Assembly: GCF_038789205.1 (NCBI RefSeq) | Contig: NZ_CP128355.1 | Span: 682,001-746,000 of the forward strand | Origin: Staphylococcus hsinchuensis | Lineage (GTDB): Bacteria; Bacillota; Bacilli; Staphylococcales; Staphylococcaceae | Direction of reading: 5' to 3' | DNA: 64,000 nt | In this document: positions 10,497-38,436 of the stretch, in pieces | Numbering within the stretch: the first letter of the stretch is position 1 | Layout: each line of letters opens with the position of its first letter | Program-made: the position numbers and the translations under genes | The notes under the pieces: model-generated | The model's input: the letters and a program-made list of their open reading frames with translations, nothing else | Told to the model about the DNA's origin: nothing | Databases searched by the model: none

Positions 10497-10965
10497 TGAG
10501 ACCTCCTTTAGAAAATAAAAAAAGCTTCCGTCCTTTGCACCCGAAATAAATCGGATGTAAAGGACGAAAGCTCGTTTCGTGGTACCACCTTAATTTGTTA
10601 CTTTATCGCTAAAGCAACCTTATCCAGTACGCTAAATTGTTAAATAGAATAACGCCACTGGGGTCAACGATTAAAAATTCGCAAAATAAAAACCCACTTT
10701 AGAACAATAAAATGAGTATTAACGAATTAAAATGATGGTATGATTCCAGTACGCCATTTAACAAAATGTTAATACTGTATCACTATAACGGGTGAACCCG
10801 TTGACACCTCATATTGGCATCACCACTCAAAGGCCATTTTCAAACTTTCTTTCCGTGTCCTCTCTCAGCAAATGAAGACTCTCTGTGCCAGTAGTTTAAG
10901 TTCTACTTTCCTTATTACTGTGTTTAAAGATTGTGTTGATCTATTTTGATATTACTTAGCTTACA
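10497..10965 (-). ncRNA. methionine T-box leader of metICFE
   Basis: About 470 bases of untranslated leader precede metI. On the minus strand the antiterminator holds AAGGTGGTACCACG (plus-strand 10575-10592), the invariant T-box that pairs with the tRNA acceptor end. A terminator hairpin and T-run follow. An AGAGAG-type element (CACAGAGAGTC) sits in the expected stem I region, and an ATG in CAATATGAGG is a plausible Met specifier. Uncharged tRNA-Met would favour the antiterminator and turn on the operon. The leader is long for a T-box, as known for staphylococcal met leaders. Confidence 0.92.
10512..10572 (-). terminator. T-box attenuator terminator
   Basis: On the minus strand AGCTTTCGTCCTTTACA pairs with TGCAAAGGACGGAAGCT and is followed by a run of T. 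It is mutually exclusive with the antiterminator containing the T-box just upstream. Confidence 0.88.
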
Positions 10966-34074: not shown

Positions 34075-35267
34075 TACTCATCAGGCTCCAAGTTAGGTAA
34101 GATATCTGCATTGAAGATTTCACGTGGAATAGCTAGGGTACAACAAGCATTTGGCACATCAACGATACCCGCAACTGTACCTTGAACAGGTGCAGAACCT
34201 AATAACATATAGGCTTGTTCGCCAGTGAAACCACGTGTCTTTAAGAATTCGATTGCGTTTAAACAAGCATTACGATAAGCCGTGTTTGCATCTAAGTATG
34301 TTTGTTTACCGTTAAATTCATTTACTGAAATACCTTCGAAGACAATGTAATCTGTATAGTTTGGCATAACTGGGCCTGGTTTGAATGCAGGGTTTTTCTT
34401 AATGCTATATTTTTCCATACCATTTTTAATGACATTAACACGTAGTTCAATCCAACCTGGCATTTCAATACCACCACAGAAAGTGATTTCGCCATCACCT
34501 TGAGAGAAATGTAAATCTCCGACAGATAGTTTGGCACCGTCTACAAATACTGGGAAGTACACACGAGAACCTTTAGATAAGTTCTTGATATCGCAGTTAC
34601 CTCCGTTTTCACGTGGTGGAACTGTACGTGCACCTTCTTTAGCTACGCGTTCGAAATCTTTCCCCTTAAGATTCCCAACTACTGCTGCATCTGTTTCTGG
34701 TAAATTTGCTAGTACTGGTTCACGATTTGGATCTGTATCTACTAATTCTCGTTCACGGCGATTCCATTCATCTAACATTTCTTGTGAAGGTGCGACACCG
34801 ATTAACCCTGGGTGAATAATACCAGCGAATTCAACGCCAGGTACGTGACGGCTTGTCGCATAGATACCGTTGAAATCCCAGATAGATTTTTGAGCATTCG
34901 GATAGTGATCAACTAAGAAACTACCGCCGTTTGTCTTATCGAAAATACCGTTAAAGCCCCATGCGTGATCTTCAAATGTACCAATATCTAAAATGTCGAC
35001 TACAAGTAAATCGCCAGGTTCAACACCATTAACGTGCACAGGTCCGCTTAAAACGTGAACACGGTTTAAATTGACGTTCTTAATATCGCTTGCATCATCA
35101 TTGTTACCAATTTGTCCGTCCGTCCAATCTAAACACTCCATACGGAATGATTCTCCAGGATCTACTGAAAATGCTGCTGGAATATCTGGATGCCATCGGT
35201 TGTGTCCTGGATGATCTTGTTGATCCATTTTCTTGTTTAAATCAATGTTAAATAACTTTTTAGGCAT
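34074..35267 (-). CDS. fmdA: acetamidase/formamidase
   Basis: This 397-residue protein belongs to the FmdA_AmdA family. GHNRWHPDIPAAFSVDPGE opens the enzyme, HFSQGDGEITFCGGIEMPG is the family core, and a C-terminal VPNACCTLAIPREIF follows. Members hydrolyse formamide, or short amides, to ammonia and the acid. The zinc ribbon partner directly follows. It could feed nitrogen and formate to the cell. The upstream leader contains AT-rich promoter sequence and an AAGGGGG site. Confidence 0.9.
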   Translation of the reverse strand: MPKKLFNIDLNKKMDQQDHPGHNRWHPDIPAAFSVDPGESFRMECLDWTDGQIGNNDDASDIKNVNLNRVHVLSGPVHVNGVEPGDLLVVDILDIGTFEDHAWGFNGIFDKTNGGSFLVDHYPNAQKSIWDFNGIYATSRHVPGVEFAGIIHPGLIGVAPSQEMLDEWNRRERELVDTDPNREPVLANLPETDAAVVGNLKGKDFERVAKEGARTVPPRENGGNCDIKNLSKGSRVYFPVFVDGAKLSVGDLHFSQGDGEITFCGGIEMPGWIELRVNVIKNGMEKYSIKKNPAFKPGPVMPNYTDYIVFEGISVNEFNGKQTYLDANTAYRNACLNAIEFLKTRGFTGEQAYMLLGSAPVQGTVAGIVDVPNACCTLAIPREIFNADILPNLEPDE

Positions 35268-35512
35268 ATTATAATCCCCCTTTATTATTATTAATATAAT
35301 ATGACTGAATTTTCCGTCAATTAAATTTTATCACATATTAATGTAAAAGTACTATTCAAGTGATAAAAGTGACAGTTGTAATCTGAATAAAAGGCACCTA
35401 AGTTGGGTTTCAACACAATGATCATTATTTATAATGAGGTTATGTGAGATCGTTCATTATATGATACACTACAAATTAGTTATGAAATCGCTTACGAACA
35501 GGAGGAATTCGT

Positions 35513-36496
35513 ATCTGTACAGGATTTTCAGTGCAGTCTGTACTGCAACATAATTATCTAGCAAGGACGATGGATTTTGCGTTTGAATCTAATAACATTC
35601 CTATAGCTGTCCCAAAGCGTTACAATTACGAATTTGAAATAGCAGGGAAACAGGAACTGAAATATGGTTTCGTCGGAACAGCTATGATGGTCGGACAATA
35701 TCGCTTTAGTGATGGCGTAAATGAACAGGGCTTGGCTATTTCTAACCATTATTTTAGTAGGCTTGCGAGTTATACTACCAACCCAAGAGAGGGGTACTTT
35801 AACGTAGGACCAGAAGAATTTATCTTATGGTTACTTGGATTTAATAACTCAATAGCCACGTTGAAACAGAGTATTGCTCAAGTGAATATCGTAGCTATCG
35901 GTAATAAAGCATTAGATAATATACCTCCGCTACACTTTATCGTGACAGATAAAACAGGAGAAACTGTGACAATTGAACCCCACAATGGTTTGTTAGTAGT
36001 GAAAGAGAATCCTGTACATGTGTTGACGAATAGCCCTAATTTAGAATGGCATTATGAAAATTTGAAAAACTACACACATCTATCGCCTCTGCAACATCAA
36101 CAAAAACAATTTGGTGAACGAAACTTTGAAGCACTCGGTAATGCTGGGGGCACATTTGGTTTGCCAGGAGGATTCACATCATCTGAACGTTTTGTAAGAG
36201 CGGCATATTTACGACAACATTTAATATTAGAGGGCAGAGATATTAATCAACATGTCAACCAATGCTTTAAAGTGTTGGATAATGTCAGTGTTCCGTACGG
36301 CGCGATTAGGGAAAACGGTGAAACGCACTATACACAATTTCAGTGTGTTTTAGACTGTAAGCATCAGACGTACTATATTAAACCATATGATAGTAGTGAA
36401 GTGTTTGAAGTCCAACTATGCCAAACGTTACTTGAAAAGGATACGCCGACGTATTTTTCATTAGAACACAAATTTAAAACACATCGTCTCAATTAA
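35513..36496 (+). CDS. linear amide C-N hydrolase (choloylglycine hydrolase / penicillin V acylase family), non-ATG start
   Basis: This Ntn-hydrolase of about 327 residues has the family opening (start)-CTGFS, where Cys2 (codon TGT 35516-35518) is the nucleophile. RTMDF with its Asp, the Asn of LTNSPNLEWH, and GLPGGFTSSERFVRAAYL with its Arg complete the active site. The reading frame has no ATG, GTG or TTG between an upstream stop at 35483 and the cysteine. AGGAGG (35500-35505) lies seven bases before ATC 35513. A GTG at 35531 is too late because it would remove the nucleophile. Family members cleave bile salts, penicillin V or N-acyl homoserine lactones. Confidence 0.82.
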   Translation: MCTGFSVQSVLQHNYLARTMDFAFESNNIPIAVPKRYNYEFEIAGKQELKYGFVGTAMMVGQYRFSDGVNEQGLAISNHYFSRLASYTTNPREGYFNVGPEEFILWLLGFNNSIATLKQSIAQVNIVAIGNKALDNIPPLHFIVTDKTGETVTIEPHNGLLVVKENPVHVLTNSPNLEWHYENLKNYTHLSPLQHQQKQFGERNFEALGNAGGTFGLPGGFTSSERFVRAAYLRQHLILEGRDINQHVNQCFKVLDNVSVPYGAIRENGETHYTQFQCVLDCKHQTYYIKPYDSSEVFEVQLCQTLLEKDTPTYFSLEHKFKTHRLN

Positions 36497-36528
36497 TGTT
36501 TAATACATAGTACACATTGATGGTATTC

Positions 36529-36555
36529 TTGACAAAAACGAATAATAAGTATAAA
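36529..36555 (+). promoter_or_regulatory. promoter of the mpsA leader / sRNA
   Basis: A perfect TTGACA (36529-36534) and TATAAA (36550-36555) with 15-base spacing. The -10 could shift by one or two bases. Confidence 0.6.
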
Positions 36556-36561
36556 TTAGTA

Positions 36562-36847
36562 ACAATGGATAAAAATAGCAAGGGTAATGAGAGCACCGTT
36601 TCCTATTCGCGTGAAAGCTTTAGCGAGTTGTTAATCAACGGATTGGCATTCTTGAAAAAGCGGACAAACATATAAGGAACATTGAGATCATTCGGCTATT
36701 ATAATGAAATCGTTTAAATCAATTTTACAAATAATATTTCAATATAGATAAAGGTAGCAAAGCAAAACATTCGATAACAATGCGTTGTAATGAAACCGAC
36801 AAGTCTAATAAATCGCTACGGGTTTATTATGGTTTGTCGGTTTTTTT
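36562..36847 (+). ncRNA. candidate structured RNA upstream of mpsAB
   Basis: About 285 bases run from a promoter to a strong terminator without a reading frame. TTCCT (36600-36604) pairs with AGGAA (36675-36679) around two hairpins, TTCGC/GCGAG (36606-36627) and GTTG/CAAC (36627-36639), giving a possible multi-branch fold. It lacks a T-box motif and does not match a riboswitch that I know. It could be an attenuating leader for mpsA, whose start lies 60 bases beyond the terminator, or an independent small RNA. Confidence 0.4.
36793..36847 (+). terminator. terminator upstream of mpsA
   Basis: AAACCGACAA / TTGTCGGTTT with inner TAATAAA / TTTATTA pairing and seven T. It lies in front of mpsA rather than after a coding gene. 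Confidence 0.9.
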
Positions 36848-36906
36848 GTAAAGATGCATTAACACTACAAATATCAAAAGTTGTATAAGTCAGGAGGTAT
36901 GACGAA

Positions 36907-38436
36907 ATGTTTAGTTCACTTAACCCAAGCGTGTTATTAATAATTAATTACATATTCGTGATCATTTCACTTTTGAGTGGTGTGGTCTTTTTAAATAAAC
37001 GTGTTCCACTGAGTTATGTACGTGTGCACGTACTGTTAGTGGCGTTCCCACCATTAATGACATTTATCGGTTTAATATTTGCACATAAAAATGAAGCGGT
37101 TGGGCTATTTTATTCTGATGTGCTTGCGTGGCTCATGGCAGCATTTGTATTGATGGTTGGATTAATTATTCAACGTTACTGTATTCGTTATTTATCGGGT
37201 GATATGCATTACCGTAAATATTTCTTAATGTTTACGTTGACGACTAGCTTTGCCTCTACAGCATGGTTAACAGGTGATATTCGTATCATGGTTCTTTGCT
37301 GGGGTCTAACGCTGATAGGTTTAACGATTTTAATCGGTTTACAAAGTGCTTGGAAAGTAACACGTGCCGCTGCGATTGTAACAGGTAAATCATTCTTAAT
37401 CGGTTGGTTAGCGTTGTTAATCGCAGTGATATGGATAGGTATCTCTACAGGACATTGGACGTATCAATCAATATATTCACCACAAAGCATAGATCGAATA
37501 GGTGATGGTACGCGTTTAATTATACATTTACTAATGGTTATAGCTGTTTTAGTTCCGGCAGCACAGTGGCCTTTCCAAAGATGGTTGATTGAATCCGTGG
37601 CCGCTCCTACACCTGTATCAGCGATTATGCATGCGGGTATTGTGAACGCTGGTGGGATTATGTTAACGCGATTTTCACCATTGTTTAGCAGTGATATTGC
37701 AACTGTAATTTTAGTGTTATTAGCCAGTGTATCGGTCGTTATAGGTGCAGGTATTAGTTTAGTGCATGTAGATTATAAGCGACTACTCGTAGGTTCAACT
37801 ATTGGACAAATGGGCTTTATGTTAGTGCAGTGTGCCTTAGGTGCTTATATACCAGCAATCATACATTTGATTTTACATGGCATATTTAAAGCGACGCTCT
37901 TTTTAAGATCAGGTTCAGCAGTGCGTCATTTCAGTGTGCCAAGACGTGCAAATGAAAGAATGTCATATTTCTGGATTGTTGCAGGTCGTGTCTTAGCGTT
38001 ATTAATTGGTTTAAGTTACTGGTTGAGTGCACCAAGTGAAGGCTACCGCATCGTCAGTGGTTTAATCTTGGCATGGTCGCTTTCTCTATCATGGACACAA
38101 CTTGTGGCATTTGGTGAAGGGAAATTAGGTCGTATATTAGGTTTAGGCACAATGATTATCGTAGGTGCAGTATATGAACTGATACATCACTTCTTCGCAG
38201 AAACATTGCATACGATAACATTTGCACAAGGTGAACCACCTTTATTCTTAATATTGGTTGTTGCAATCATTTTATTATTAGGTAGTACGATAAGTATGTG
38301 GGTTGCACGTCATCGTAATTCTAGATTATTTTCAATTATTTATATGAGAATCGTACATTTGGGTGAAGCGCATAATAGTGCAGTTGAACGCCATCCAAAC
38401 TACCTTAAAAAATATATTGCTAGAGGAGGACGTTAA
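36907..38436 (+). CDS. mpsA: MpsA / DabB-type NADH-dehydrogenase-like membrane subunit of the bicarbonate transporter
   Basis: This 509-residue protein has about 14 membrane segments and belongs to the NuoL/MrpA proton-translocating family. PTPVSAIMHAGIVNAGG and the helix 7-8 lysine/histidine region (HLILHGIFKATLFLRSGSAV) are intact. In S. aureus MpsAB, and in DabAB elsewhere, this subunit powers CO2/bicarbonate accumulation together with the DUF2309 subunit encoded one base downstream. A CAGGAGGT site precedes the ATG. Without the rest of the Nuo or Mrp genes, the MpsA reading is the best one. Confidence 0.9.
   Translation: MFSSLNPSVLLIINYIFVIISLLSGVVFLNKRVPLSYVRVHVLLVAFPPLMTFIGLIFAHKNEAVGLFYSDVLAWLMAAFVLMVGLIIQRYCIRYLSGDMHYRKYFLMFTLTTSFASTAWLTGDIRIMVLCWGLTLIGLTILIGLQSAWKVTRAAAIVTGKSFLIGWLALLIAVIWIGISTGHWTYQSIYSPQSIDRIGDGTRLIIHLLMVIAVLVPAAQWPFQRWLIESVAAPTPVSAIMHAGIVNAGGIMLTRFSPLFSSDIATVILVLLASVSVVIGAGISLVHVDYKRLLVGSTIGQMGFMLVQCALGAYIPAIIHLILHGIFKATLFLRSGSAVRHFSVPRRANERMSYFWIVAGRVLALLIGLSYWLSAPSEGYRIVSGLILAWSLSLSWTQLVAFGEGKLGRILGLGTMIIVGAVYELIHHFFAETLHTITFAQGEPPLFLILVVAIILLLGSTISMWVARHRNSRLFSIIYMRIVHLGEAHNSAVERHPNYLKKYIARGGR

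What the first reader, a model, noticed from the sequence alone, without database searches (positions are those of the whole stretch)
35500..35600. Ntn-type amide hydrolase whose catalytic Cys2 requires a near-cognate ATC (or ATT) start codon
The choloylglycine hydrolase/penicillin V acylase family needs Cys right after the initiator Met. The frame reads ATC-TGT-ACA-GGA-TTT-TCA (x-C-T-G-F-S) at 35513, seven bases after a perfect AGGAGG. Between the in-frame stop at 35483 and the Cys codon there is no ATG, GTG or TTG; only ATT 35507 and ATC 35513 remain. A GTG at 35531 would delete the nucleophile, so automatic calls will truncate the gene. Near-cognate starts are rare and can tie expression to IF3 levels. 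An ATG-to-ATC change that silences the gene is the other reading.
Basis: partly seen in the sequence, partly recalled or inferred. Interest (0 to 1): 0.72.

Follow-up and report, generated by a model that had tools for sequence, protein, structure and literature searches.

The report
Staphylococcal amidase gene starting at ATC
In one staphylococcal species, a gene for an amide-cutting enzyme (penicillin V acylase/bile salt hydrolase family) appears to start at the very rare start codon ATC instead of ATG; two strains share it and the gene still looks functional, so it is probably a natural low-expression setting and not a sequencing error or a dead gene.

Summary
Frame 35513-36496 encodes an intact choloylglycine/penicillin V acylase-type amidase (PF02275) whose nucleophile Cys directly follows ATC. 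The ATC lies 7 nt after AGGAGG, with no ATG, GTG or TTG between the in-frame TGA (35483) and the Cys codon. It is not an assembly error: a second strain (Staphylococcus sp. Marseille-Q5304, 97% identical over the gene) has the same ATC and leader. It is derived: of 67 places in 63 Staphylococcus genomes, 65 have ATG and these two ATC. It does not look silenced: between the ATC strains there are 9 nonsynonymous and 19 synonymous changes (omega 0.12, p=1.6e-5 against neutrality). The site carries the extended Shine-Dalgarno motif AGGNAT that published S. aureus work links to non-canonical starts. Best explanation: a real AUC start, decoded with fMet, trimmed to N-terminal Cys and weakly expressed. 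Translation and any IF3 link are untested. It is a new member of a known kind; AUC is not among the published staphylococcal cases that I found.

The parts
35500..35505 (+). Shine-Dalgarno core AGGAGG; 35503-35508 AGGAAT matches the published extended-SD motif AGGNAT
   Evidence: motif definition PMC13009471 section 19
35513..35515 (+). ATC start codon (inferred)
   Evidence: same in L002/L011; the aligned codon is ATG in 65 of 67 Staphylococcus places
35516..35518 (+). TGT, catalytic Cys2
   Evidence: C2 invariant in 26 of 26 aligned proteins; aligns to residue 1 (Cys) of 2oqc and 3pva chains
35513..36496 (+). penicillin V acylase/choloylglycine hydrolase-family amidase, 327 aa plus stop
   Evidence: PF02275 260.4 bits; 2oqc_A is the best sequence match and the best fold match (TM 0.90/0.93); model pLDDT 85.1
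35483..35485 (+). in-frame TGA that closes the frame upstream
35531..35533 (+). first canonical in-frame start (GTG); would lose Cys2; weak SD; not GTG in the three nearest relatives

Best explanation
This is a working Cys-Ntn amidase gene of the penicillin V acylase-like branch whose ancestral ATG start became ATC in this species. The ribosome is probably placed by a strong extended Shine-Dalgarno (AGGAGG plus the AGGNAT motif). Initiator tRNA then decodes AUC in the P site with fMet, and removal of Met exposes Cys2. Output should be a fraction of that from AUG; the three published S. aureus AUU/AUA sites measured gave about 10-30%. Shown here by sequence: the site, its presence in two strains, its derived origin, purifying selection and an intact active site. 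Inferred: that translation starts there, the fMet step, the low output and any regulation.
For: Site geometry. Same ATC and leader in a second strain that differs at 28 of 978 nt in the gene. Derived: 65 of 67 Staphylococcus places have ATG, 2 have ATC, none GTG or TTG, and the ATC pair is nested among ATG genes. Omega 0.118, p=1.6e-5 against neutral. C2, R18, D21, N173 and R226 invariant in 26 proteins. Fold matches B. subtilis PVA. The extended-SD motif is present here and absent in the three nearest ATG relatives. A ccpN-like gene of the same genome has ATA and no canonical codon upstream in frame. A B. subtilis rny-lacZ fusion with an AUC start mutation still gave regulated expression, at much lower levels (PMC10303841, one passage). 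The NCBI-sourced protein of the second strain starts at this codon.
Against: No expression, ribosome profiling or N-terminal peptide data. Only two strains have ATC. Omega is higher than in three of four neighbours (0.018, 0.028, 0.040; FmdB 0.214), so constraint is somewhat looser. The 99-nt identical stretch around the start is not significant (permutation fraction 0.08), so special constraint on the leader is not shown. 12 of 65 Staphylococcus ATG relatives also carry the extended-SD motif, so it is not diagnostic. 'AUC' does not occur in the main text of the S. aureus paper. The B. subtilis AUC mutant was expressed at much lower levels, so output could be too small to matter. No convincing promoter was found: a 9-of-12 match at 35261-35288 is at chance level.
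Confidence: 0.83

Rival explanations
1. ATG-to-ATC silenced the gene and it is an early pseudogene in this species.
For: Three measured S. aureus non-canonical starts cut expression to about 10-30% of AUG (PMC13009471), and an AUC mutation in B. subtilis gave much lower expression (PMC10303841). Omega is higher than in three of four neighbours.
Against: Both strains carry ATC, so loss would predate their split, yet changes since then are 9 nonsynonymous to 19 synonymous against 72% nonsynonymous expected (p=1.6e-5). No stop in either frame and no length difference over the gene. Active-site residues intact.
Confidence: 0.1
2. The start is used, but a short tract around it was recently exchanged between the two strains, so ATC is younger than the gene's divergence and says little about long-term function.
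For: A 99-nt identical stretch 35476-35574 spans the start.
Against: Permutation fraction 0.08, so a run this long is not rare at the observed divergence; a longer identical run (164 nt, 35684-35847) lies elsewhere in the gene.
Confidence: 0.04
3. The gene is translated from GTG 35531 and makes a shorter protein without Cys2.
For: It is the first canonical start.
Against: Weak SD (-4.1 against -13.5 kcal/mol); the codon is not GTG in the three nearest relatives; it removes the Cys that is invariant in 26 of 26 proteins.
Confidence: 0.02
4. Base 35515 is a sequencing error.
For: Only one base separates ATC from the usual start.
Against: The same base is in a second assembly of a different strain.
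Confidence: 0.01

Closest known systems
Non-canonical start codons of S. aureus: infC (AUA), ccpN (AUA), cvfC1 (AUU), citZ (AUA in the NCTC 8325 lineage); PMC13009471
   Same: Near-cognate AUN codon and strong SD (extended SD predicted for infC, ccpN and cvfC1); citZ is likewise a lineage-restricted change in a metabolic enzyme
   Different: The codon is AUC; the enzyme's chemistry pins the start to one position; another staphylococcal species; no translation data yet
Penicillin V acylase of Bacillus subtilis (2oqc) and B. sphaericus (3pva)
   Same: Same fold (TM 0.90/0.93 and 0.88/0.86), N-terminal Cys nucleophile, Tyr at the position that separates PVA from BSH
   Different: 37% and 30% identity; substrate unknown; below the NCBIfam penicillin V amidase cut-off (254.7 of 600 bits)
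E. coli infC and pcnB AUU starts (recalled; pcnB is in the reference list of PMC13009471)
   Same: Low-output near-cognate starts subject to IF3 (recalled)
   Different: Other kinds of gene; AUU, not AUC

Membership tests
Choloylglycine hydrolase/PVA family (PF02275) | Whole-domain match to the family model | tested here: met
   260.4 bits against cut-off 20.4, residues 1-308 counted from the Cys, profile 1-310 of 316
Choloylglycine hydrolase/PVA family (PF02275) | Catalytic residues Cys2, Arg18, Asp21, Asn175, Arg228 (CpBSH numbering; PMC8066178 and PMC3289653, passages) | tested here: met
   C2, R18, D21, N173, R226 invariant in 26 of 26 proteins (the window's and 25 picked by me from the 120 listed of 825 hits). 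That N173 and R226 correspond to Asn175 and Arg228 is my reading of the motif context
Choloylglycine hydrolase/PVA family (PF02275) | Mature protein begins with the Cys after Met removal | not testable with these tools
   Needs N-terminal proteomics; only the codon order is shown
Penicillin V acylase (function) | Aromatic residue in place of the BSH Asn81 (PMC8066178, passage) | tested here: met
   Tyr80, nearly invariant, aligns with Tyr of 2oqc; its equivalence to BSH Asn81 is inferred
Penicillin V acylase (NCBIfam equivalog NF058572) | Score above the curated cut-off of 600 bits | tested here: not met
   254.7 bits; so PVA activity is not claimed
Bile salt hydrolase (NCBIfam equivalog NF038245) | Score above the curated cut-off of 350 bits | tested here: not met
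   237.3 bits
Staphylococcal non-canonical start sites | No canonical in-frame start that preserves the protein | tested here: met
   Codon list from TGA 35483 to Cys
Staphylococcal non-canonical start sites | Extended SD motif (AGGNAT/AGGNGT/GGGNAT/GGGNGT within 20 nt) | tested here: met
   AGGAAT; but 12 of 65 Staphylococcus ATG relatives also have such a motif
Staphylococcal non-canonical start sites | Initiation peak in retapamulin profiling, reduced output in reporters | not testable with these tools
   No expression data for this organism

The most novel reading that the evidence does not exclude
A natural AUC start codon acts as a species-specific volume control on a Cys-Ntn amidase: because the catalytic Cys fixes the start to one codon, the lineage lowered, and possibly made nutrient- or IF3-responsive, the enzyme's output by changing the start codon alone, with an extended SD keeping it recognisable.
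Probability: 0.3. Interest if true: 0.65.

Novelty: new member of a known kind. Interest (0 to 1): 0.5.

Why it matters
Natural non-canonical starts are hard to prove from sequence, because another in-frame start can usually be invoked. Here the N-terminal Cys nucleophile fixes the start chemically, two strains keep the codon while the gene is under purifying selection, and the other 65 of 67 staphylococcal places found use ATG. That makes it a clean natural case for asking whether AUC initiation is used, how weak it is, and whether the extended Shine-Dalgarno compensates. It would add AUC to the AUA and AUU cases published for S. aureus (PMC13009471).

Tried and rejected
Sequencing error: opposed by the second strain. 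Truncated GTG start: opposed. ATT 35507: leaves Arg-Ile before the Cys and sits 1 nt from AGGAGG. Overlapping frames with ATG 35461 and 35482 (30 and 23 codons) as leader peptides: weak predicted SD pairing (-4.9 and -2.2 kcal/mol), not pursued. RNA structure at the start: nothing unusual (z -0.96 and 0.14). Promoter/terminator scan of 35200-36950: 11 promoter-like sites against 8.9 expected, no terminator-like site. Rfam at gathering thresholds: one T-box far away. Special conservation of the leader: not significant.

Survey for other near-cognate starts: 400 kb of this genome (20 stretches) against 398 kb of G077 chosen to be syntenic (20 stretches) gave 136 reciprocal ORF pairs with both ORFs at least 100 aa. 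The filter flagged 9 in this genome and 5 in the outgroup. By eye I kept 2 in this genome (this gene, and a BCCT-type transporter also flagged in the outgroup); the rest looked like ordinary starts, overlap with an upstream gene, or rRNA antisense. It is a sample, not the genome, and the sorting was by eye. Two looser versions of the filter had their output cut.

Literature: ten full-text searches. Six were aimed at non-canonical starts, one at betaine transporters and AUU, three at the enzyme family. Judged from the listings, none showed a natural AUC start in Staphylococcus; the library lacks most subscription journals. Hecht 2017 is not held.

Full report
WHAT IS THERE. The window lies in a 2.28-Mb genome (G000) whose nearest match is Staphylococcus sp. 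Marseille-Q5304. Frame 35513-36496 encodes an amidase of the choloylglycine hydrolase/penicillin V acylase family (PF02275, 260.4 bits). Upstream are AGGAGG (35500-35505), a 7-nt spacer, ATC and then TGT for the catalytic Cys. From the in-frame TGA at 35483 to the Cys codon there is no ATG, GTG or TTG. The protein search finds one copy in the genome. Neighbours are a divergent formamidase (FmdA, 659.7 bits against cut-off 500) and, downstream, a pair that I would call DabB/DabA (recalled from their sequence, not tested).

IS THE ATC REAL. Marseille-Q5304 (L002, the same sequence as G034/L011) has the same ATC and 37 identical upstream bases, while the gene differs at 28 of 978 nt. Raw reads could not be checked.

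IS IT DERIVED. I read the start codon at all 67 places that the genus search lists (63 of 84 genomes have a match): 65 ATG, 2 ATC (this strain and Marseille-Q5304), none GTG or TTG. Six Enterococcus/Vagococcus loci also have ATG. In a maximum-likelihood protein tree of 73 rows the two ATC genes are sisters (support 100/100) inside a 16-row clade (99/96) whose other 14 rows are ATG; their attachment to the nearest three is weak (88/44), and the program warns of long branches elsewhere in the tree. A single ATG-to-ATC change on this species' branch is the simplest reading.

IS IT DEAD. Between the two ATC strains the gene has 9 nonsynonymous and 19 synonymous differences, dN/dS 0.118. A simulated neutral gene would have 72% nonsynonymous (one-sided binomial p=1.6e-5). 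Neighbours give 0.018 (FmdA), 0.214 (FmdB), 0.040 (DabB-like) and 0.028 (AMP-binding, last 371 aa). So the gene has been constrained while carrying ATC, though less tightly than three of four neighbours. C2, R18, D21, N173 and R226 are invariant in 26 aligned proteins: the window's and 25 that I picked from the 120 listed hits. The AlphaFold2 model (pLDDT 85.1, weak around 181-220) matches B. subtilis penicillin V acylase best (2oqc_A, TM 0.90/0.93).

WHY THE START IS PINNED. In this family the N-terminal Cys is the nucleophile and its free alpha-amino group takes part in catalysis after the initiator Met is removed (PMC8066178 and PMC3289653, passages). Therefore only a start codon immediately before TGT can make active enzyme. 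ATT 35507 would leave Arg-Ile ahead of the Cys, and GTG 35531 would delete it.

HOW IT PROBABLY WORKS. In S. aureus, profiling, reporters and a structure show Shine-Dalgarno pairing that extends towards the start codon. Non-canonical starts are described for infC (AUA), ccpN (AUA), cvfC1 (AUU) and citZ (AUA, one lineage); the three tested in reporters (ccpN, cvfC1, citZ) gave about 10% of AUG output in poor medium and up to 30% for ccpN in rich medium (PMC13009471: abstract, passages, sections 8, 10, 18, 19 and part 1 of 2 of section 9). That paper's extended motif AGGNAT occurs here as AGGAAT at 35503-35508. The predicted duplex with the 16S 3' end (same in all six rRNA copies) is -13.5 kcal/mol and includes pairs beyond the core. 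The three nearest ATG relatives lack the motif, but 12 of 65 Staphylococcus ATG relatives have one, so this fits compensation without proving it. AUC can initiate in a related bacterium: a B. subtilis rny-lacZ fusion with an AUC start mutation was expressed, at much lower levels (PMC10303841, one passage).

OTHER SUCH STARTS IN THIS GENOME. A ccpN-like gene (named by me from its HTH and CBS layout; found through the CBS family) has ATA and no canonical codon between its upstream stop and the ATA. infC has ATA at the position published for S. aureus, after GGAGGTG, but an in-frame GTG that overlaps the SD lies three codons upstream, so ATA is not forced there by sequence alone. In a 400-kb sample, 2 of 136 ORF pairs showed a convincing near-cognate start by eye: this gene, and a BCCT-type transporter (ATT) shared with the outgroup. 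For the transporter, 18 of 22 loci examined have ATT at the same codon and 4 more distant ones ATG; in 10 of the 18 no canonical codon lies between the upstream stop and the ATT, and one of those ten (L134) has an internal stop. Two further orthologues listed at 80% identity got no locus and were not examined.

WHAT IT IS CALLED. It is a member of the PF02275 Cys-Ntn amidases. Tyr80 is of the penicillin V acylase type, but the protein is below the NCBIfam cut-offs for both the penicillin V amidase and the bile salt hydrolase equivalogs, so I name no substrate. As a start codon it is a new member of the staphylococcal non-canonical starts. 'AUC' does not occur in the main text of the paper that lists them, and six searches on such starts listed no natural staphylococcal AUC start (judged from listings).

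LIMITS. Nothing here shows translation. Two strains are few. IF3 dependence and a regulatory purpose are inference. 

Noticed in passing
L090:7324-8868 (G000:C1:667324 on, outside the window); orthologues L122-L143: A BCCT-type betaine/choline transporter (below NCBIfam cut-offs) has a conserved ATT start: 18 of 22 orthologous loci examined have ATT at the same codon, 4 more distant ones ATG; in 10 of the 18 no canonical codon lies between the upstream stop and the ATT. It is not among the four S. aureus non-canonical starts in PMC13009471 and may be the better case, since it is conserved across species.
   Followed up: partly
L040 minus strand near 1731 (infC); L160 minus strand (ccpN-like gene): infC has ATA after GGAGGTG, as published for S. 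aureus, though an in-frame GTG overlapping the SD lies three codons upstream. The ccpN-like gene has ATA with no canonical codon upstream in frame.
   Followed up: partly
window 10557-10927, minus strand: A T-box leader is the only Rfam match in the window at gathering thresholds.
   Followed up: no
window 35461-35553, plus strand: Two nested ATG frames (ATG 35461 and 35482; 30 and 23 codons) overlap the amidase start in another frame; predicted SD pairing is weak for both.
   Followed up: partly
G000:C1:121326-122765 (outside the window): Another BCCT-type match in this genome has an internal TGA, while Marseille-Q5304 has a match of similar score without one (G034:C1:436374-437813); whether these are the same gene was not tested.
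   Followed up: no
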